Shown here one piece after another: positions 31,183 to 44,679 of a stretch of 64,000 nucleotides of DNA (within the stretch, counting starts at the first letter, position 1; each line of letters opens with the position of its first letter). Below the pieces are notes generated by a model. It made no database searches and was not told the origin of the DNA. It worked only from the letters and a program-made list of their open reading frames with translations. The position numbers were made by a program, and so were the translations under genes. This stretch comes from Xylogone sp. PMI_703 (taxonomy: Eukaryota > Ascomycota > Leotiomycetes). Where the stretch lies: positions 2,108,001 through 2,172,000 of the forward strand of contig JAJTUQ010000003.1 in assembly GCA_021399445.1 (NCBI GenBank), given 5' to 3'.

Positions 31183-34100
31183 ATGGCGGACCAAGCGGGA
31201 GCCAATGCTCCGGCCCAAGCTAACCCAGATGCACCAGCTCAGGGTGACCCTGATACTGCTCCAGATCTCTGGAAAAAGGCCTATAGAAACCTCTACGATG
31301 AGAATTCTAAGCTGGTCACAGCATACTTAAATATAGTCCTCAAAGACCAGGCTGGAGATCCTTCTAGCGATGGAAATGATGACGGAACCGGTACAGGCCT
31401 CACCCAAGCTGACGCCGCTGAGGTCGACGCTTATCTCAAGCTGGACAAGGATCAAATCAGCAGCTTTCTGGCCGCAAAAGTTGAAGGAGCACATAATGCT
31501 CAGATAAGATTCGAAATCCGCGAGAAGGAAGTCGTCATCGACATCAAAGAGCAAGTTGATCGAATTGTTAAAGGTATCATATGTGCTAAGGATTTCATTG
31601 GTGCTACGTTCAGCAATGAGCCACATGCAGCGCTTGCCTGGGCCGGTGTCTGTGTGGTACTACCGGTAGGCAAATTTTTATTTGTCTTCTACTCAGTAGA
31701 GCTGAAAAGGGGCCTTTACACTGCAATATCTTTCACATGCTCATTGAAGGCGTATCACTTACAGTAGCCAGTTTGTTCTTCATGCTCATGAGCAATCCAG
31801 CGCGGCGCTCAATGGTTTCGAATACATCACCAATCTGATGCTTCAATATCTTGTTCGGGAGCAGATTTATCGCGGGGCGGACGCCGATTCCATTGACTTT
31901 AGCGGCGGAGACAACGCTGCTAAACTCAAAGAGCAGTTTGAGTCAAAGACTGTGAAATTGTACACAAGAATTCTCGAATATCAGATTCGACTAGCTCGGC
32001 AGTACAGTCGCCATCGTCTTTTTCGATACGTGCGCAATCTAGCTGCCGTTGACGGCTGGCCCGGTAAACTCGAAGAGATAAAAAGTTTCGAGAAGCAGGG
32101 AACTGGTGACCTGGCCGTGATCGATGCCATGCGACTCAAGTTTATTGCTCTCGAGCAGAAGCGATCGTTTGATGAGCTCTCAAAACGTCTGGATACCAAC
32201 CAAAGGGAGATGGTTGCCATGGTCAAGAAAATGGAGGCTCAAGCTATCCAAGCTCGGAACAAAGAGAAGGAAGAAGACCAACTGAAGGCACGCGAGGCAG
32301 CATTGCAGAAGGCATTCAGGACTATAGTCAACAAGCCACACGAAATCCCAAAGCCCCTGGATTATAGACGCAAGATTGAAAACCGAAAGGGAAAAGTGCT
32401 CAATGGAACATGCGACTGGGTCTACGGCAATTCTGAATTTGAGAAATTTGTTCACTCTAACCAACATGACCTCCTATGGATCCACGGAAATCCTGGAAAA
32501 GGCAAATCGATGTTGTCACTCTCCCTCATCGATAATATTTCGGTAACTGTTGCTTCTGGTAGTAACAATGCCCCGAAAGCAACGGTCTCGTATTATTTCT
32601 TTGCACATGACGATTACCGTTTAAAACCTGCAGTCTCCATGATGCGGTTGCTGCTCTTTCAGCTCCTAGAGAATCGACCGGGACTTGTCAGCTATATTCT
32701 CCCAGATCTCGACATTAAGGGGGACGAGCTGTTCGCGCAGCCTGAAGCGCTGCAGATCAGCTGGCGTATTTTACTGGATATGATCCGTGCATCACCACCA
32801 TCCGAAAGCTCTTATTTTATCATCGATGCTTTAGATGAATGCGATATCGACTCTCGTTCTGAATGGCTTCAGCATCTAGTTGAAGCGCTAAACTTTGAAG
32901 GACAAGAGAAAAGCTCACAGAAACAACAGCATAGGATGAAATGGATCATCACAAGTCGCTCAACTGAGTTCGACATTCGCGAGGCCATAGGAGAAAACAA
33001 GTTCAGGAACATTTGCCTCGAGGACCACGCCGATGAAATTGAAAAAAATGTTCTGAGCTACATTGATGCCCAGATGGCAACATTTACAAACCGATACCTC
33101 GAGAAAGAAAAGACTGTTATACGTACTACACTACGTGAAAACTGTGAAGGCACCTTCCTCTGGGTATGGCTCGCCTGCGAACAGATACGCAAGACACGGC
33201 CCGGCCTTGTTGCAGCTGTGCTTAAGAAACCAGTTAAAGGACTTGACGCCTTTTACCAGCGCATGCTAGAATCAATCGAGGAAGACGCACAAGACAAGAC
33301 TAAAGATATATTACAGGTTGTACTACATGCTCAACGACCTCTCAGCCTCCGAGAGCTGGCGATTGCAAGTAACGTGGTCACCGAAGTCGACGACAACACC
33401 ACCAATGCCATGGTGGCATATATTGAACTGTGTGGCTCACTTTTGATTATTGAGCAAGCAACAGCCGTAGTGACTCTTGTGCACAAATCTGCGCGGGCCT
33501 TTCTAATGCAAAGCATCAAAACGGACCCGTACAGAAGTCTTTATGCAGCTAGTTTTGCCGAGGATGAGGGACATCTAATTCTGACTGAAAGGTGTTACCA
33601 CTATCTCCATTCCGGTGCCCTTACCACCTTTGCGACTGAATACAGCACAGTGTCAGAGATTAGTACAGCCGTAGACAAAGTTGCTACAGCATATCCATTC
33701 ATCAAATATGCGACCGCGTATTGGACGCTTCATGCCCGGAAAGCCAGCAGCAGAAGCAATGAGAGCAGGATGCAAGATATATTCATTCAAGATATGGAGT
33801 TTCTAGAGCCGGGAGAATCTGTAATTCGTGGAGCTTGGGGCCTAATTTCCGAATTTGGCGCGTGGGGGAGTCAATCCTATTCTGCACTTCATGTTGCTTG
33901 CCGGGGAGGCATACCTCCTCTAGTCTCTTATCTCCTTGGGCGCGGTGATGATATTGACCAGCCAGATCGCCGTGGATGGACACCACTTCACCATGCCACT
34001 TGGAACGGCCATGAGGATGTTGTAGCTCTGCTGATCGAAAAGGGGGCGAAGACAGACGCGAAGGACAAAGAAGGCAAAAATGTTCTCCATTTTGCGGCAC

Positions 34101-35593
34101 AGCGCGGCTACGAGTCTATCACTAGGCTTTTGTGTCGAGTAGAGAATAGCGCCACACTACTCAATGGTGCTGATAAGAAGGGAAAGACTCCAATGCATCT
34201 CGCTGTGGAAAAGGTTCATGAAGCCATTGTACGGATTCTTGCACCGCTTATGGCGGCTTCGTCCATCGATCCCAGGGACGATAATGGGTACACTCCTCTG
34301 CACCACGCTGCGTGCTGGGCAGATGTCCAACACTGGCTCCATACAGCCAGATCCAGAGCCGGAGGATGTTCAGCCGGCGCTGCCAGCAGCATATCTCTCT
34401 CGAGCACGCTCAAGATACAACACGCAAAAGATGACAACATTCAGGATGAAAAATTGTTTGATTCTATAATCCGCATTCTGCTTGATCATGGGGCACGAGT
34501 TGAAGCAGTCGACTCATTCGGACAAACGCCATTGCATCTCGCTGTCTTTGCGGAGCAATTATCAGCTATTTCAGTACTCTCGAAACATGGTAAATGCAAT
34601 CTCTCGCCTCGGAATAGTGCAGGTTTCACTCCGCTGATGTGGGCTACTGACAACAGTTTATTCGAGGTTGCCGAATTGCTCCTTGGGCTCGGCGCGAATC
34701 CTTCAATTGCCACCGATGACAACCGAACACCATTGCTATTTGCAACGTATGAAAAGAATACTGAAATGATTCAGCTGTTACTCCGGTTTAATGCTGACCC
34801 ATGTTCCCAAATCGAAGGCGGTCGCGAAAATGGTGGTTCTCCGCTCTACATATCCTGCCAACATGGGCCACTCGAGGCGGCAAAGCTACTCATAGACAAG
34901 GCAACCGACTTGAACATCACCTTTAGGGAATCGGGAGACACGCCATTACTGATTTCCCTCAACTGGACAAAGCATCACAAGATCTCTGAGGCACTGATCG
35001 GCGCTGGAGCAGATATATTCCAAAGTGATAACGACAACTATACTCCACTTCATGCTGCAGCCGTGCAGGGCGGAGAGTCTCTAACTAAACTACTCCTTTC
35101 CCTGGGTGCCGATATTAATCAGCGGACAATCAAGATTGGATACACTCCCTTTATGTGCGCCGTTAGCAGTAAATGCTATCCCGTTGCCCAGCTTCTCGCC
35201 AACGCAGGTTCCGATCTACACCTGACAGATCCCCGTGGCGGTACTATGCTGCACCTAGCTGCGTATTTGGGACCACCAGAGACGATTCAACTTTTGCTGG
35301 ATGCGGGGATCGATGTCAATATGGTGGACGATCATGGGGCCACTGCACTGCACGACGCAGTAGCTTCCGGATCCGTGGCATCGGTGAAGATGCTTGTTGA
35401 TGCGGGAGCGGACTTGACTGCCGTTTGTGAGGAATACGGCGGCACGGCTTTAGAGGTGGCGATAAAGAGAAAAAATTGGCAGGAGGAGCATCGTCAGAAT
35501 ATGGAAAAGGAGGAGCAGGTGGTGCAATATTTGCAAGGCCTTGTCAGCACAAGTCTGCCAGATCGTACAGCAACTACGGCAGCGAACAATTAA
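31183..35593 (+). CDS. NLR-like STAND protein: N-terminal NACHT-associated domain, NACHT NTPase, ankyrin repeats
   Basis: Exons 31183-31665 and 31772-35593 join across a 106-bp intron (GTAGGC donor, TAGCCAG acceptor) in phase 0, giving 1435 codons and 1434 residues. Order: a disordered Ala/Asp/Pro start, an N-terminal domain of the kind found before fungal NACHT modules (LWKKAYRNLYDEN… to about residue 250), a NACHT NTPase with Walker A HGNPGKGKSML and Walker B FIIDALDECD, a winged-helix-like linker, then about fourteen ankyrin repeats (TPLHHATWNGHEDVVALL type). One stretch of about 45 residues near 34.33-34.45 kb breaks the repeat rhythm and may be an insert or a local frame disturbance. Such proteins act as intracellular sensors in non-self recognition and cell death, oligomerising on ligand binding. 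It is the immediate upstream neighbour of the decayed region at 36-42 kb. Confidence 0.92.
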
Positions 35594-37934: not shown

Positions 37935-38207
37935 CAATATTATTCGTACTTATGCATTAATATGCTTATATTTTAGTTATCTATAGTTATACCAGAGGGT
38001 CAAACGCGCTGTGGTGCCGGATGTCGGTGGTGGTAGTCTGTGAAGTGAAAATAAGAAAACGACTAAGTGGATTTAGGTATTCCCTACTTTTATCTATATC
38101 CTCCTATTCTCCGATGCCCAATCACTCGAGGGCTTCTCCATCTGGTGTCGTGTCTTCAACTGACAAACTATTTAATAATATCGGATCTTCTACTCTAGGC
38201 AATATCC

Positions 38208-38974
38208 TCAATCAACGCTATGCTCTGTCGGGTAGAAACAGTACTCCTCATCTCCAACGGTCATAGTCGCCAATTCAGCCATTTCTTCCAAATCCTCGTC
38301 AACTTCTTCCTTAGTTGCCTCTACTAAGACGATGGGCTCTTCGCTCTTTCCGTCACTCGTCAAGAAAGCACCCATGTTACTAAATAGCTCCGTCTCAAAA
38401 CCGGCCCTCTTCGGCCTGATGACATGCATTCGATATGCAAAAACAATATCCGGCGCCGTGTTATACGAGCCTGTTATCATCTTTTTTTGATGTGCAATGC
38501 CGCCGCCGACTTCCACAGGAACAGTGCCGGCTGGCGGCCCTGAACCACAAATATTTCCACTGAAGCTGCTACCGGCTTCCTTCGTCACCGAGAAGGACGA
38601 CTTTGCGATGCGGAGTCCAGAAATGATATAAACTGGAGACTTCCCGAAAATGCCGGGATTGATATGATCACGAACTTCATGTATAGCAGTGATTGCAGAA
38701 ACAGTAGTTGCTGACAGCGGCTCTGCAAAGGCCGGGATTTCGTGATCTACCTTTCCATATTTCAGAGTGGAATGGCGCTTGGCATCGCTTTTTATCGATG
38801 ACGATGCTGAGCTTTCATGATGGTGGTTTCGTTCGAGGAGAACGCTGGTTCTAGGAAGAGCAATACCGGTATCGCCGGGGAGAGATGCGAGAATTGCTGT
38901 AGGTCGAGCAGGATGTGCAATTACGGTTCCGAGTTGAAAGTGAAGTCGGGTGGGAGAAACCAAGTTTTTGGCAT
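38208..38974 (-). pseudogene. Gasdermin-like gene (HET-Q1/RCD-1 type), apparently frame-broken at its N-terminus
   Basis: The long minus frame ending at 38208 covers about 250 residues of the fungal gasdermin-like family (pore-forming proteins of allorecognition cell death). Supporting stretches are LGTVIAHPARPT, KVDHEIPAF, SPVYIISGLRIAKSSFSV, DIVFAYRMHVIRPKR and an acidic tail (EEVDEDLEEM). That frame has no ATG: a stop lies upstream at 38982-38984 and only late Met codons follow. The only well-placed ATG, at 38972-38974, opens another frame (MPKTWFLPPDFTF) that fits the family's N-terminus but ends at a TAA after 17 codons, beside the start of the conserved frame. Only a few bases separate the two, too few for an intron, so a small deletion is the simplest reading. 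The protease gene follows upstream on the same strand. Confidence 0.72.
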
Positions 38975-39502
38975 AGCGACTTTAGAGTAAATACAACTGT
39001 TTCGAAGAAAGATATTTATCAAGCTTGAATATATTCTTCAATCTTTACAAAGTTTCAAGAAATATCTGCACCGTTTTTCTATGCCTGGAGTTGCCTAGAA
39101 GACTTCAAAGTTGTGTTCGTTGAAGGTGTGAGAACCAATTGAATAAATACCTCGTAATGGCTGATGGGCTCCAAGGGATGCTTGGGCTGAGATTTACGCA
39201 GCATGCATTGCATCTGCAGCTGTTGCATGAAGCGGTCCAGGGCCAGGCTTTGACAACAATTGATTAGATTCCTCTCACCGGCCTGAAAATCGAGAAACAG
39301 AGCCCCGCGAGGCCACGGGGACTTATTTGTATCTAGAATTTCGATGAGAAGTAATAAGTCGAGAAATTGTTAAGCTGAACTCCAGTATATGTGAGCTCGT
39401 GAAGAGTTGTCTCCATGTGGTATTTGTTTTAAATTGCCTCAAGTAAAAGAAAAAGGTAAATCAAGAGCTGTATATGGAATGTTCTTTACTCTCAAGTGTC
39501 TA
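38975..39502. other. Spacer between protease and gasdermin-like genes
   Basis: 528 bases on the promoter side of the gasdermin-like gene. No other gene or repeat seen. Confidence 0.5.
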
Positions 39503-42400
39503 TCATGAACGAAGGCCGGAAATAGCTGTAAATATTGCAGCCAAAATCTCTACGTCCTTTGATCTTTCACTCCAGAAACCAATAGGATTGATGAAATCGC
39601 CTTGGTAGTCCCTGTTTACTGCCATCACTTTAAGCATGCGAGCCATCCCGTCGCTGGTTTTAAGCTTATCATTGATCTCGTTGAACCATTTGGCTTGGAG
39701 TAATTCTGGGAGAGTGGCGGTATAGGACAGCGTGATGGCGACAATTCCGGCAGCAATTGCAGTAGCAATCGAAGTTCCGGGACTGAAATCTCCTTCGGGG
39801 AAAAATTTCTGGACTTCTTCGATGATTGTGGTAGGAATGTTGTCTCCGTACGTTCCAATGAGTCGAGGCGCGTCGGCGGATTTCGTCGGATTGGTCTTCA
39901 GGTATGTTCCTTGATAATCGGTGGCGTAGATCGAAATGACAGAAGGATGACGAGCGGGAAAGGCTTCTCCACGATCGGTTGAAGAATTCCCAGCGCTAGC
40001 TAGGAATATAATTGAGTTTGCTCGCTCCTTCCTGACTTTGTCGATGGCATCTGATATAATTGTACTAGTCTTTGGAAAGCCAAATGACATGGATATTAGA
40101 TCAACTCTCCAATCTAATCCCGCGTATTCGATTGCTTGGGCCACATTTTCCTCGTTCTGTTCTAGCTGGTCTTGAGTCTCCGCAACATGGGCAACATAGA
40201 GATCCACGAATGGGGCAACTTGTAGGACTAGGCGTACCATGAACGATCCATGTCCAAAATTGTCGATGTAGAATTGTGAGTCAGCAGCGAAGTCTTTCCA
40301 GCCTCTGAAGCAGCTCGCTACTCGAATGTTCTGGAAAAAATTAAGATCCTTATTGCAACCCGTATCCAAAATTGCAACTCGAATTGGAGTTGTTGTCTTT
40401 GTACGCCTTCGACAGCGAAACACATGGCTGCAGATGACGTTGAGTCGATCCACCCAGCCATCAATTCGACTCGCGGTGCCACCATCGAAGGTAGGCGTTT
40501 GCATCTCACACCAGAATTTTCCAAAGTCCTCGTCTTTGGCAACAGTTGATTTGTGTTGTTCAACTCTCCGCATTGTGATAAACTGAACGTCGGTCAATGG
40601 GTTGAAGCCGACATTTGCCAGCCAAAGCAATGGAGCGACAACCTTTCTGTACAGAGAATCCTTTCTTTCTTCAAGAACTCGGATTTTTGCATCATTTAAA
40701 TCCTGACAGGCCGTTTGATTCCGTCCATGTTGTTTCCTTATCAATCTCCGCGTCTCCTTGAAATTTCGAGACTCTAAGCAGTTTTCGACAGCTTCAACGA
40801 AGACATTTTTGTACGAAAAACTGTCCCATTTAGCCTTTTTAAACTCGTCCAAATGCATCTTGGCCTTTGCATGCGCTTTATTGGTGTGAGCGACGGGACT
40901 AAGCTTGGAGACATTTGGATCAAAAGGTTCCAATCCAAGTGCCTTGCCGAAGCCAATTTCAAGCAAGATAATACCCAAAAAGAGAATTCGGGGGTATCGG
41001 TGAGTGTAATCACCCATCTCGAGGTACTCATTAGGTGAACGGCTGTATGGAATGAGAGGGAATGAAACAAAAGCCTTCAGTGGAACTGGGCTGTCAGGTT
41101 GGCTGTCCACTGGCATGAACCAAATGTCGTTACTGCTCCATCTCACATCCATCAGGTCCGAGCTATAAAACTGCCAACAGGCGCGGGCCACAGCATGAGC
41201 CAAGTTAATTTTGTGCTCGACGGTGAGATCGCTGAACTTGAGTAAGCTGGAAAGTTGGATCCCGTCGCCAGGACAAGTGAAATGCTCAAGAACTTCTGGA
41301 TTAGGGTATTTGCGAAGCTGGTAGTTTTCGTCCAACTGAAGACGAACTAGGTTATAATTCGGTTCATCTAGCATTCGGCATATAGTTCCTTGTTTGATTC
41401 GGACCATCTTACGATCGGGTTCATCATCTGAATCTGAGCTTTCCGGATCCGAATCCAAGTCCGAATTACCGTTACCGTCCCCCAATTTCCTAGTCACGAT
41501 CAGTTTGAGACTGGAGTTTCGTAGCGAACGTACAAGGAGATGTCAAGAGAAATCTCTTGCCAAAACTTCATTCCTTCTGCAGCAACGATTAGTTCAACAT
41601 GAGCAAGTTCCTCTCTCATCCGCACTCCATTGTTTAGACAAATTCTGGTGTGATGCCATGCACCTTGCATATTGTCCCGGATTTGAACGGTGTGTGTCGT
41701 TGGATCACAAGTGGAGTGCTTCTTAATGGTATCAATTAAACATCGATTGATTCGCTCTGGGTATATATCTTCTTCTCGAGGATTTAGATGACGATCATAA
41801 GGATTACTTTGATCACTATCGCTTTAGTCGGTTCGATTGAGCTTGCCCCAGAGGTTTTCAAATCGTTGTCGATACGGTTCAATGCGATCCGCCTTTTGCA
41901 TTAAGAATTTCTCGATTGACTTATTCATTTGATCTTTGTCGGACTGAAACTTTTGAACTAGAATATTGTAGAGGCTTTGAGGATTTAACCTGATCAAATC
42001 CTGAACTGGATAAAGAGACCACTGTCGGTATGTTGTTAGAAATACATCATAGCTGAATGAATATATTAGGAAATCTCCGCGATGATATTGAACGACATAA
42101 GAAGTATCCTGTGATGACGACAGCGCTTCTTTACTTTTTGTAAATCGTGGAGATTTGGAGTAGTAGAGAAACACATACCGTGCATATTTCTAGAAGATCT
42201 CGTAGAGCCCCATGAGATAGCCTTTGAATCTCCGAGGAAAGTTGATAGATGGGTTGAGATTCCAAAGCGTTTGAGACAAAATGAAGGTGGACGGCGATGT
42301 TGGCGCCAACCGGGGATTGGCATTTCCGCGCGAGGCCGAACATTACCTCCCAGGCCACGACGGCAACTGAGGCCAACAGCTCAGAATTCTTCGAAGTCAT
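39503..42400 (-). CDS. Subtilisin-like (S8) serine protease of the HET-Q2 type, with an in-frame TAA
   Basis: Exons 42179-42400, 41534-42108 and 39503-41489 join across introns of 70 and 44 bp and sum to 928 codons in frame. The last third is an S8 subtilase with all three catalytic residues: Asp in VAILDTG (near 40365), His in DNFGHGSFM (near 40249) and Ser in SPGTSIATA (near 39770). Upstream is a large N-terminal region (about 560 residues) of the DUF7580-like type seen in fungal allorecognition proteins (CDPTTHTVQIR, EELAHVELIV, KINLAHAVARACWQFY). There is no signal peptide, so the protein is cytosolic. A TAA at 41824-41826 (codon 169) interrupts the frame although similarity-like sequence continues on both sides. 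A 54-bp intron at 41822-41875 (GTATCG…AAAG) would remove it in frame, but its signals are poor. Known relatives cut and activate a neighbouring gasdermin-like protein. Confidence 0.82.
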
Positions 42401-42738
42401 AGCCGGCAAGTTGTGGATGAGAGCATGGTATCGCGGCAAGCAGGATCGTTTGTGATGCTGTTTGACGGTGACGAGGCTGGCTGTGGATGCATTCTGCTCA
42501 TGGAACAACCTCCACCTGATCAACCCCACATCGAGGCACCAAGTGGAACAAAAGCCTCGCGCGGCCCTCTTGAGCTGTGTGCTGACAGTTTGAGCCTGCT
42601 CTTTAGATATCAATCTACTTTGAGTTAGTCGGACCTGATGCGGAACTCCATAGCTCGATGATAGCACTACCGAGCTGTCAAATGGCATTCAACTACGGAA
42701 CTATGCAACTGGTATGAGGCACCAGGCGGATCGTTCAA
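42401..42738. promoter_or_regulatory. Bidirectional promoter region
   Basis: The 338 bases between the divergent starts of the protease gene and the zinc-finger gene. Shared control is possible. No specific site recognised. Confidence 0.4.
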
Positions 42739-44679
42739 ATGGCCACCGCGGACATGCCAGAGGCGTCAACGGCGGAATTAACGCAATCATGTTTTGACCA
42801 GTTCGCTTTCTGCATTGATAAACTGAATGGAACAACCAAAACCCACATCGGTAACCGCCATGCTGACTTCAAGCTCTGGGCGGATAGCGTTGGAGTTGTT
42901 GCACAAGGAGAGGCATCTCTGGACAGGAGGTTCCACGGTCGACACAGTGATATCTTCCTTATTAAAGGTCTTCTGTCCATACTGGAGGGGTGTTTGAAAG
43001 CTTGTGCCTCTGCAGCCAACAATGAACATAGTATCCAGGAGCATCTTGGAAGGATCGACTCTATGGTACAGAACCTGGTCTTGGTTGGTGTCGCTATTCG
43101 CCGGAGTGGTAAAAAGTCTCGGCTCCAGAAAGCAGATGCCTCGTTCGATCGGGACAAATATCTCGACCTTAGAGCACATCTTGCCAGCTTGATCGTGTCA
43201 AAGCCTACTGAAGGTCCCAGAGTGATCGACGAGAATACAGGGAGCTCAGAATACTTCGCCAAATTAGAGCTAGACCCTATCCAAGACCGGTTGGTTGAGG
43301 CCAACTTGAGGCGTCGACACAGACTCATGGAAGCTCAGAGACATTCATACTTGTTGAAAGGCCCAATATCATTTCCCCATCCTCAAACACCGATACCTGA
43401 AGCGCACACCGTAGCTTCAGGCTCTACTCAACCTACGCCTGAGGATTTAGAGAGTCAGGTAAACAAGATGACGTTGAAGGAAAAAGAGCCGAAGCCTGGT
43501 GTCATCAGAGCTGCGAGTAACACCTTGACAACGCCCGGAACAATTGCATCAGCTCCAGAGACCGGGTTTAAAGGACTTCAACAGAAGGGTCCAGCCGGGT
43601 CAACGGTCACTAGAATCACCGCTATCACTGCAGGAGCTCAGTATCCCAAGGTAAAGGCCGCGAATACTAATCAACTTTCTTTTAAATGCCCATGCTGTTG
43701 TCAAGCTATTCCCGCAAGAGAAGGGGAAGACAGCCAGTTTAGGAAACATTTAGCATACGATATATGCCCTTATACGTGCATTCTCGACAACTGCCCAACT
43801 CCTTACAAACTCTTTGTCACAGAGAAAGAATGGTATGAACATTTTATGAGTGTCCATCCACCTCGATGGCAATGTCCTTGTTGTCCCGGAGATCCTCCCA
43901 TCTTCATCTCGCTAGCAGACATTATGGCACATCTCCAAATAGATCATTCGAATGACGTGTCCGATGATGAGCTTGCCGATGTCTTGTCTGAATCCGTAAT
44001 CCATGTCATGAGTATAACAAAATGCCCACTCTGCGATTCGGATGGACCTCCGGATTCCCCAGAGCTGGTAGAGCATGTCTTAGAACACATCCACGACTTT
44101 TCACTACGTTCGCTTCCTTGGCCCAAAGACCCCCTACTGAACCTCAACAGGTCTACGGGGACATTCAACGTTAGCCTGAGACACGCCGATTATATCGCTC
44201 GGTGGATAGACGAAACTGCTCCCGAGGAAGAGCGTTTACTGCAGCTCTGCGCCTTCGACCACAATTCAGCAGCGAACGCTGAGGGGAAAAGTTTAAAGGA
44301 ATCAGAAAAAGACTACTTTGCTCAGAATGACTACTTCTTAGACGAATCAAGCGACGGCAGATACCTGTTTCAATCCGGACAATTGTCGGATGTTACTGAT
44401 CACACTAGATCAAAAGTTTCGAACACTCTCTCTTCCTTTGAATCCCAACCTGTCAGCTTGTCCCCCTCACTCGCTGGTTCAGATTACCTCAAAGGCTTAC
44501 CCCCGGGGGGCATGAGGGCGCTGTTCGAGAGGACGCACGTATGGTATTGCGGGTGGTGCGAGGAGGGACCACATTCAGACTTCAATGATTTCTGTATTCA
44601 ATGTAACCGCCGAATAGATAGCTCTGCACGCGTAGAGTACAGAGTGCCCCATGAACCATACCAAAATGAAAAGAAATAG
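42739..44679 (+). CDS. C2H2-type zinc-finger protein of the fungal STAND/allorecognition-linked type
   Basis: An intronless 646-residue protein. Residues 1-200 form a helical N-terminal domain (CFDQFAFCIDKLNGT, LKACASAANNEHSIQEHL) of the type found at the front of fungal NLR-like and ankyrin proteins. A Ser/Thr/Pro linker follows. From about 310 comes a Cys/His-rich block: CPCCCQAIPAREGEDSQFRKH, CILDNCPTPYKLFVTEKEW and WQCPCCPGDPP, then further C2H2-like pairs to about 470. Near the C-terminus, HVWYCGWCEEGPH and FCIQCNRR add another Cys cluster. The zinc-binding block is characteristic of a fungal family often encoded near death effectors. The role is unknown; nucleic acid or partner binding is inferred. 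It shares a promoter region with the protease gene. Confidence 0.8.
   Translation: MATADMPEASTAELTQSCFDQFAFCIDKLNGTTKTHIGNRHADFKLWADSVGVVAQGEASLDRRFHGRHSDIFLIKGLLSILEGCLKACASAANNEHSIQEHLGRIDSMVQNLVLVGVAIRRSGKKSRLQKADASFDRDKYLDLRAHLASLIVSKPTEGPRVIDENTGSSEYFAKLELDPIQDRLVEANLRRRHRLMEAQRHSYLLKGPISFPHPQTPIPEAHTVASGSTQPTPEDLESQVNKMTLKEKEPKPGVIRAASNTLTTPGTIASAPETGFKGLQQKGPAGSTVTRITAITAGAQYPKVKAANTNQLSFKCPCCCQAIPAREGEDSQFRKHLAYDICPYTCILDNCPTPYKLFVTEKEWYEHFMSVHPPRWQCPCCPGDPPIFISLADIMAHLQIDHSNDVSDDELADVLSESVIHVMSITKCPLCDSDGPPDSPELVEHVLEHIHDFSLRSLPWPKDPLLNLNRSTGTFNVSLRHADYIARWIDETAPEEERLLQLCAFDHNSAANAEGKSLKESEKDYFAQNDYFLDESSDGRYLFQSGQLSDVTDHTRSKVSNTLSSFESQPVSLSPSLAGSDYLKGLPPGGMRALFERTHVWYCGWCEEGPHSDFNDFCIQCNRRIDSSARVEYRVPHEPYQNEKK

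What the first reader, a model, noticed from the sequence alone, without database searches (positions are those of the whole stretch)
38208..42400. Gasdermin/subtilisin cell-death pair (HET-Q type) on one strand
A gasdermin-like coding region and an S8 protease with a complete Asp-His-Ser triad lie side by side, same strand, 528 bp apart. In Podospora anserina the gasdermin-like het-Q1 and the subtilisin-like het-Q2 form an allorecognition pair in which the protease trims and activates the pore-former; Neurospora rcd-1 is a related gasdermin. The protease here has a long DUF7580-like N-terminus, no signal peptide, and an NLR-like gene nearby. This looks like an immune-type module, and its N-terminal sensor region may be a previously undescribed variant.
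Basis: partly seen in the sequence, partly recalled or inferred. Interest (0 to 1): 0.92.

Follow-up and report, generated by a model that had tools for sequence, protein, structure and literature searches.

The report
Broken gasdermin in three-gene death module
A fungal genome carries a pore-forming suicide gene next to the protease that probably triggers it, as in other fungi, but here the pore gene looks broken and a third, receptor-like zinc-finger gene turns out to travel with the pair.

The parts
38211..38939 (-). Gasdermin, part still in frame with relatives (pore-forming domain and acidic C-terminal tail)
   Evidence: orthologue model has gasdermin fold. About 16 codons are missing in frame relative to P0004 residues ~67-82, at the modelled hairpin tip.
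38936..38974 (-). First 13 codons of the gasdermin (conserved N-terminus), in a different frame from the rest
   Evidence: a profile of relatives finds it as a separate piece, E 2e-4.
38845..38924 (-). Intron of the deposited gasdermin model (P0003) that spans the frame break; doubtful, removes a conserved stretch
   Evidence: 80 nt, 5' site GTAATT, no CTRAY branch motif; of the 17 rows of alignment A1 only P0003 itself lacks this stretch.
39503..41489 (-). Protease gene, last exon: DUF7580 domain and S8 subtilase domain with Asp-His-Asn-Ser
41534..42021 (-). Protease gene, middle exon (helical region upstream of DUF7580), interrupted by an in-frame stop at 41824-41826
   Evidence: The deposited model P0054 skips it with a 54-nt intron (41822-41875) lacking a CTRAY motif; Scytalidium P0055 has this stretch as coding.
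42179..42400 (-). Protease gene, first exon (helical N-terminus)
   Evidence: intron 42022-42178 has GTATGT, CTAAC and CAG.
42401..42738 (.). 338-bp gap between divergent 5' ends of protease and zinc-finger gene (353 bp at the paralogous locus)
42739..44679 (+). Zinc-finger, receptor-like gene (646 aa, one open exon): conserved core residues ~1-550, C-terminal RanBP2-like finger module (label recalled)

Best explanation
The locus is a copy of a three-gene cell-death module of ascomycete fungi. A zinc-finger protein with an exchangeable C-terminal module (receptor or bait) is transcribed divergently from a multidomain protease (helical N-terminus, DUF7580 domain that may be a dead kinase, S8 subtilase). 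The protease gene lies beside a gasdermin gene. In an intact module the zinc-finger protein would sense a stimulus and signal to the DUF7580 protein. Its protease would then cut the short C-terminal tail off the gasdermin, which would form pores and kill the cell. In this strain (Xylogone sp. PMI_703) this copy has probably lost its gasdermin recently, and its protease gene carries a stop that only a doubtful intron removes. A second copy on the same contig (C19, 6.368-6.375 Mb) has full-length gene models. Shown: gene content, fold of the gasdermin orthologue and of the S8 part, conserved linkage, lesions in the assembly, module swapping. Inferred: direction of signalling, cleavage, trigger, loss of function.
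Against: No expression, cleavage or phenotype data. After the out-of-frame part is removed, the gasdermin shows no significant excess of changes over its Scytalidium orthologue (11 against 5, p=0.21), so decay is recent at most, or the gene may work in a way not seen here. The protease bridge intron has a length divisible by three, so a slightly shortened protease is possible. One accepted intron (in P0189) also lacks a CTRAY motif, and one in P0066 has an odd 5' site with its only motif 8 nt from the end. Linkage in other species rests on gene numbers and contig lengths, not on DNA; 62 of 84 zinc-finger hits and 39 of 51 gasdermin hits showed no protease hit on a contig of the same length. 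Some zinc-finger fusions may be gene-prediction errors. At the C22 locus the zinc-finger gene is on the far side of the gasdermin and not divergent. At the C12 locus the neighbouring gasdermin candidate was not confirmed. Two of 14 zinc-finger loci and 6 of 17 DUF7580 loci stand alone.
Confidence: 0.62

Rival explanations
1. Ordinary intact two-gene fungal gasdermin/Q2-like protease cluster; the deposited gene models are right (both odd introns are real) and the zinc-finger gene is just a neighbour.
For: Deposited models P0003 and P0054 fit the DNA exactly; the two-gene cluster is the published norm, about 80% of fungal gasdermin genes being clustered with a protease gene (PMC12881547, PMC10197012, passages).
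Against: The deposited gasdermin lacks a conserved stretch that the other relatives aligned in A1 keep. Both bridging introns lack a CTRAY motif, whereas 6 of the 7 other introns fitted have one; that their 5' sites are weak by the usual fungal consensus is recalled. Both also remove residues that relatives have, which the motif-less intron of P0189 does not (compare P0189 and P0190). Zinc-finger linkage is about 160 times chance in this genome and recurs by gene number in other genera.
Confidence: 0.2
2. A het-Q2-like haplotype in the making: the executioner of the pair is dead while protease and receptor are kept, so the strain would carry a protease able to set off the gasdermin of a fusion partner, the situation that the pseudogenization model predicts for the birth of an allorecognition locus.
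For: Gasdermin broken but S8 triad and domain intact in 679 open codons; the model is published for het-Q1/het-Q2 (PMC10197012, figure legend).
Against: The protease gene also carries a stop; one strain only, so no evidence for segregating haplotypes; the second, intact gasdermin in the same genome might be hit by such a protease (not tested).
Confidence: 0.1
3. Assembly or consensus errors created the frame break, the internal gap and the stop, and the locus is intact in the living strain.
For: Only one assembly was available; the remaining codons show no clear relaxation.
Against: The gasdermin differences are multi-base deletions rather than single-base slips, and the internal one is in frame; three separate errors in 4 kb would be needed.
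Confidence: 0.08

Closest known systems
HET-Q1/HET-Q2 of Podospora anserina (Clave et al. 2022, not held; known here through passages of the reviews PMC12881547 and PMC10989679)
   Same: Fungal gasdermin plus S8 subtilase; proteolytic activation is the working model.
   Different: het-Q1 and het-Q2 are different genes at the same locus and HET-Q2 is 388 aa; here both genes are together, the deposited protease is 880 aa with DUF7580, and a zinc-finger gene is attached.
Two-gene fungal gasdermin / Q2-like protease clusters (about 80% of fungal gasdermins)
   Same: Adjacent multidomain protease and gasdermin; kinase-like domains fused to proteases are already mentioned in PMC12881547.
   Different: A third, divergently transcribed zinc-finger gene with exchangeable C-terminus is linked; not mentioned in the passages read, and not found by the searches.
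RCD-1 of Neurospora crassa
   Different: RCD-1 is triggered by a partner allele; sequence similarity is weak (best phmmer E 0.12).
Fungal NLR receptors
   Same: Exchangeable repeat domains (WD40, TPR, ankyrin) and shared effector domains (S8, PNP_UDP_1).
   Different: No nucleotide-binding domain found in the zinc-finger or DUF7580 proteins scanned.

Membership tests
Fungal gasdermin (fGSDM) | Gasdermin pore-forming fold | tested here: met
Fungal gasdermin (fGSDM) | Continuous coding frame from start to stop | tested here: not met
   First 13 codons in another frame, about 16 codons missing inside; deposited model joins them by a doubtful intron. It is filed as a gasdermin-family gene copy, probably non-functional.
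Fungal gasdermin (fGSDM) | Short C-terminal inhibitory tail removed by a protease | tested here: inconclusive
   About 50-residue low-confidence tail after the pore domain in the model; no cut site could be assigned.
Fungal gasdermin (fGSDM) | Gene clustered with a protease gene | tested here: met
HET-Q2-like (Q2L) protease | S8 domain with intact catalytic residues beside a gasdermin gene | tested here: met
HET-Q2-like (Q2L) protease | Continuous coding frame from start to stop | tested here: inconclusive
   In-frame stop at 41824-41826, removed in the deposited model by a 54-nt intron without CTRAY motif.
HET-Q2-like (Q2L) protease | Cleaves the neighbouring gasdermin | not testable with these tools
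   Needs a bench assay.
het-Q allorecognition system | Gasdermin and protease are alternative genes (idiomorphs) at one locus | tested here: not met
   Both genes lie side by side here, at the second locus, and by gene number in five named relatives.
NLR receptor | NACHT or NB-ARC domain | tested here: not met
   None in the protease or zinc-finger protein. The separate NACHT-ankyrin gene at 31748-35593 is an NLR but no NACHT was found among the 12 ORFs scanned at the other loci.
Kinase-like fold (DUF7580 as pseudokinase) | Profile or structural match to protein kinases | tested here: inconclusive
   hhalign P 0.0014, probability 17%, over 113 columns with what look like helices E and F in order, controls P 0.56 and 0.15; an earlier, smaller kinase alignment gave probability 1.3%; no PDB sequence hit; structure searches listed only the S8 part.

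The most novel reading that the evidence does not exclude
DUF7580 proteins and their divergently transcribed zinc-finger partners form an undescribed family of NLR-free fungal immune receptor pairs. The zinc-finger gene carries exchangeable baits or sensors (WD40, TPR, ankyrin, kinase, PI-PLC, annexin, much like integrated decoys). The DUF7580 gene is a pseudokinase-like relay fused to different NLR-type effectors (S8 protease acting on gasdermin, or PNP_UDP_1). The window is a copy in which the executioner has been lost.
Probability: 0.4. Interest if true: 0.85.

Novelty: new variant of a known kind. Interest (0 to 1): 0.62.

Why it matters
What activates the proteases that switch on fungal gasdermins is stated to be an open question (PMC12881547, passages). 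A conserved third gene with a swappable, receptor-like C-terminus is a concrete candidate for the missing sensor, and it can be tested by deletion or by exchange between paralogous modules in saprobic laboratory fungi. The broken copy is also a natural case for asking how such modules decay or turn into allorecognition loci.

Tried and rejected
HET-Q idiomorph reading: rejected because both genes are side by side here and in relatives. NLR as third member: no NACHT in 12 ORFs scanned by Pfam at the other three S8-DUF7580 loci (ten, two; one search listed 29 ORFs of 230 aa or more there), so not supported.

Relative-rate test: a first run gave 22 against 5 changes (p=0.002) for the gasdermin, but this came from the out-of-frame N-terminus. 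With that part removed it is 11 against 5 (p=0.21), or 9 against 4 away from gaps, and gives no support for relaxed selection. Protease 26 against 22 (p=0.67) and zinc-finger 23 against 11 (p=0.06) are not significant either.

DUF7580 as kinase fold: a small kinase alignment gave nothing (probability 1.3%), a larger one a suggestive match, PDB sequence search nothing; left open. The structure searches of the 908-residue model listed subtilisin-type proteases only, so the DUF7580 and N-terminal parts are untested by fold. The gasdermin candidate P0174 at C12 was not confirmed. The shared promoter gaps of window and second locus show no blastn similarity. Clave et al. 2022 is not held, so its list of 18 Q2L architectures (number from PMC10197012) could not be checked. 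Literature searches for a third gene: DUF7580, no paper; no paper; PMC13304501, PMC9950082 and PMC3942035 came up there and were seen in the listing only.

Full report
What the sequence is. The window lies on C19 of a 50-Mb genome in 25 contigs; C19 is 8,055,043 bases long. Deposited proteins from a contig of that length in Xylogone sp. PMI_703 (genus in Leotiomycetes) match at 100% over 82% (P0003) and 99% over 98% (P0054), so this is taken to be that fungus.

It looks broken. In relatives the protein starts with a conserved 13-residue motif that runs on into the next strand. In the window that motif (ATG at 38974) is in a different frame from everything after it. A profile of relatives finds two separate pieces, 1-17 and 18-279. 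In addition about 16 codons are missing in frame at the tip of the modelled first hairpin (P0004 residues about 67-82). The deposited model P0003 bridges the break with an 80-nt intron that deletes a stretch the other relatives aligned in A1 keep. That intron has no CTRAY branch motif and a 5' site (GTAATT) that is weak by the recalled fungal consensus. Intact copies exist in relatives and at the second locus of this genome (P0023).

The protease. The gene runs from 42400 to 39503 (minus). Exons are 42400-42179, 42021-41534 and 41489-39503, separated by introns with good signals. It encodes a helical N-terminus (by the model of paralogue P0066), DUF7580 and an S8 domain. The catalytic Asp, His, oxyanion Asn and Ser are present and are the same residue in 72, 71, 72 and 73 of the 74 proteins of A3 (74 of the 119 hits were aligned). 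The middle exon contains an in-frame stop (41824-41826). The Scytalidium, Talaromyces, Cladophialophora and paralogous proteins have coding sequence there. The deposited P0054 removes it with a 54-nt intron without a CTRAY motif. Of the seven other introns fitted, six have a CTRAY motif (one of them, in P0066, only 8 nt from its end) and one, in P0189, has none; that one removes no residue that its relative P0190 has. Whether the protease is made is therefore open.

How old is the damage. Counting changes peculiar to Xylogone or to Scytalidium gives 11 against 5 for the in-frame gasdermin, 26 against 22 for the protease and 23 against 11 for the zinc-finger core, none significant at 0.05. An earlier run looked significant only because of the out-of-frame residues. 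So the loss is recent, or unproven.

Pair conservation. Of 51 gasdermin hits, 20 carry a named source. Of these, 12 share a contig length with an S8-DUF7580 hit, counting both Xylogone genes. Five have consecutive gene numbers (Scytalidium g5279/5278, P. frequentans N7494_009401/009402, Conoideocrella QQS21_009054/009053, Cladophialophora PV07_09761/09762, Clarireedia 005251/005252), one is two numbers apart (T. aggressivum), and one (Gaeumannomyces) has far-apart numbers on the same contig. Eight named ones and all 31 unnamed, mostly short metagenome contigs showed no such match. In this genome a second pair lies at C19:6.370-6.375 Mb, tail to tail, with full-length models. A third lies at C22:2.7329-2.736 Mb (gasdermin profile E about 1e-12). 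A fourth S8-DUF7580 gene (C12) has a neighbour of gasdermin-like size (P0174) that could not be confirmed.

The third gene. The ORF at 42739-44679 (plus) encodes a 646-aa protein (P0175) with many conserved Cys and His between residues 317 and 452, transcribed away from the protease across 338 bp (353 bp at the second locus). Its 84 homologues include proteins numbered next to the protease in six annotated genomes (Scytalidium, T. pinophilus, T. amestolkiae, P. frequentans N7513, Cladophialophora, X. bambusicola). One is numbered next to a gasdermin (X. hypoxylon). In Scytalidium and Cladophialophora all three genes are consecutive. In total 22 of 84 share a contig length with a protease hit, on 21 distinct contigs, and 62 do not; absence says little, since both searches scored only the best-sharing candidates. 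In this genome, genome-wide searches plus one search give 14 core loci; 22 matches that cover only a C-terminal module (RanBP2-like, annexin, TPR or a repeated end) were left out. Of the 14, 12 lie within 7.5 kb of one of 17 DUF7580 loci, 0.074 expected under uniform placing, 11 of them divergent; 11 of 17 DUF7580 loci have such a neighbour. Inherited duplication of the pair may explain part of this, but the linkage has been kept.

Exchangeable ends. Of 42 zinc-finger proteins compared with P0175 (of 84), homology ends between its residues 533 and 587 in 40, the others being P0175 itself and a short protein, and what follows differs. By the precomputed domain column, tallied by eye and leaving out PF26082 and PF26118, 38 of 84 have another domain (WD40-type 15, kinase 9, TPR 4, ankyrin 2, PI-PLC 2, six others). 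hmmscan found such a module in 14 of 17 proteins checked, the BAR domain of P0243 being the weakest case. Two fusions are seen directly in uninterrupted frames of this genome: zinc finger plus annexin (C19:6567564-6569045), whose annexin part is 75% identical to another gene at C22:770547, and zinc finger plus ankyrins (C22 locus, L023:1451-3697). One Trichoderma protein (P0222) joins the core to an S8 protease. DUF7580 in turn is fused in this genome to PNP_UDP_1 at C24, and S8 and PNP_UDP_1 are both among the listed NLR N-terminal domains (PMC9815663, passages). The RanBP2-like label for the window's C-terminal finger is recalled, not from a call.

Mechanism. By analogy with HET-Q2 and HET-Q1, where the protease removes about 5 kDa from the gasdermin's C-terminus (PMC12881547 and PMC10989679, passages), the S8 domain would cut the acidic tail. 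The conserved zinc-finger partner with variable ends is the likeliest sensor, and DUF7580 the relay. A kinase-like nature of DUF7580 is suggested but not shown; PMC12881547 already mentions kinase-like domains fused to such proteases. The NACHT-ankyrin gene at 31748-35593 has no counterpart among the 12 ORFs scanned at the other loci.

Novelty. Gasdermin/protease clusters are published as two-gene units (PMC10197012, passages). PMC12881547 speaks of two- or three-gene clusters without naming a zinc-finger member ('zinc finger' does not occur in it, nor in PMC10197012). Searches found no paper on a zinc-finger partner. Clave et al. 2022 itself was not held.

Noticed in passing
window 38123-38188 (+): 22 codons just 3' of the gasdermin resemble residues 565-586 of the Scytalidium zinc-finger protein g5277 (68%, E 0.004), directly following the part that matches at 42739-44499; possibly a relic of a rearrangement or an alternative C-terminal piece.
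   Followed up: no
window 31748-35593 (+): NACHT-ankyrin NLR gene (NACHT_N, NPHP3_N, ankyrins), opposite strand to the pair.
   Followed up: partly
G000:C12:6871020-6871976 (-) = L022:3021-3977: 319-aa single-copy frame (P0174) beside the fourth S8-DUF7580 gene; size and place suggest a divergent gasdermin, but no sequence match was found.
   Followed up: partly
L058:270-2159 (-) (G000:C24): DUF7580 fused to PNP_UDP_1 in one 630-codon frame, with a divergent zinc-finger gene.
   Followed up: partly
L058:4444-5442 (+), C-terminal 60 codons: This end recurs at 89-100% identity at C5:76670, C24:254581, C25:67068 and C11:130261, as if it were a repeat or mobile piece.
   Followed up: no
G000:C25:560569/563533 and C12:5438716/5441239: Two DUF7580 genes without a zinc-finger neighbour have a kinase match a few kb away in divergent orientation.
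   Followed up: no
G000:C12:6863170-6867308 (-): Two zinc-finger copies in tandem upstream of the fourth S8-DUF7580 gene.
   Followed up: no
deposited models P0003 and P0054: Both deposited gene models contain an intron that seems to have been placed only to pass a frame break or stop; annotation at such loci may hide pseudogenes.
   Followed up: partly
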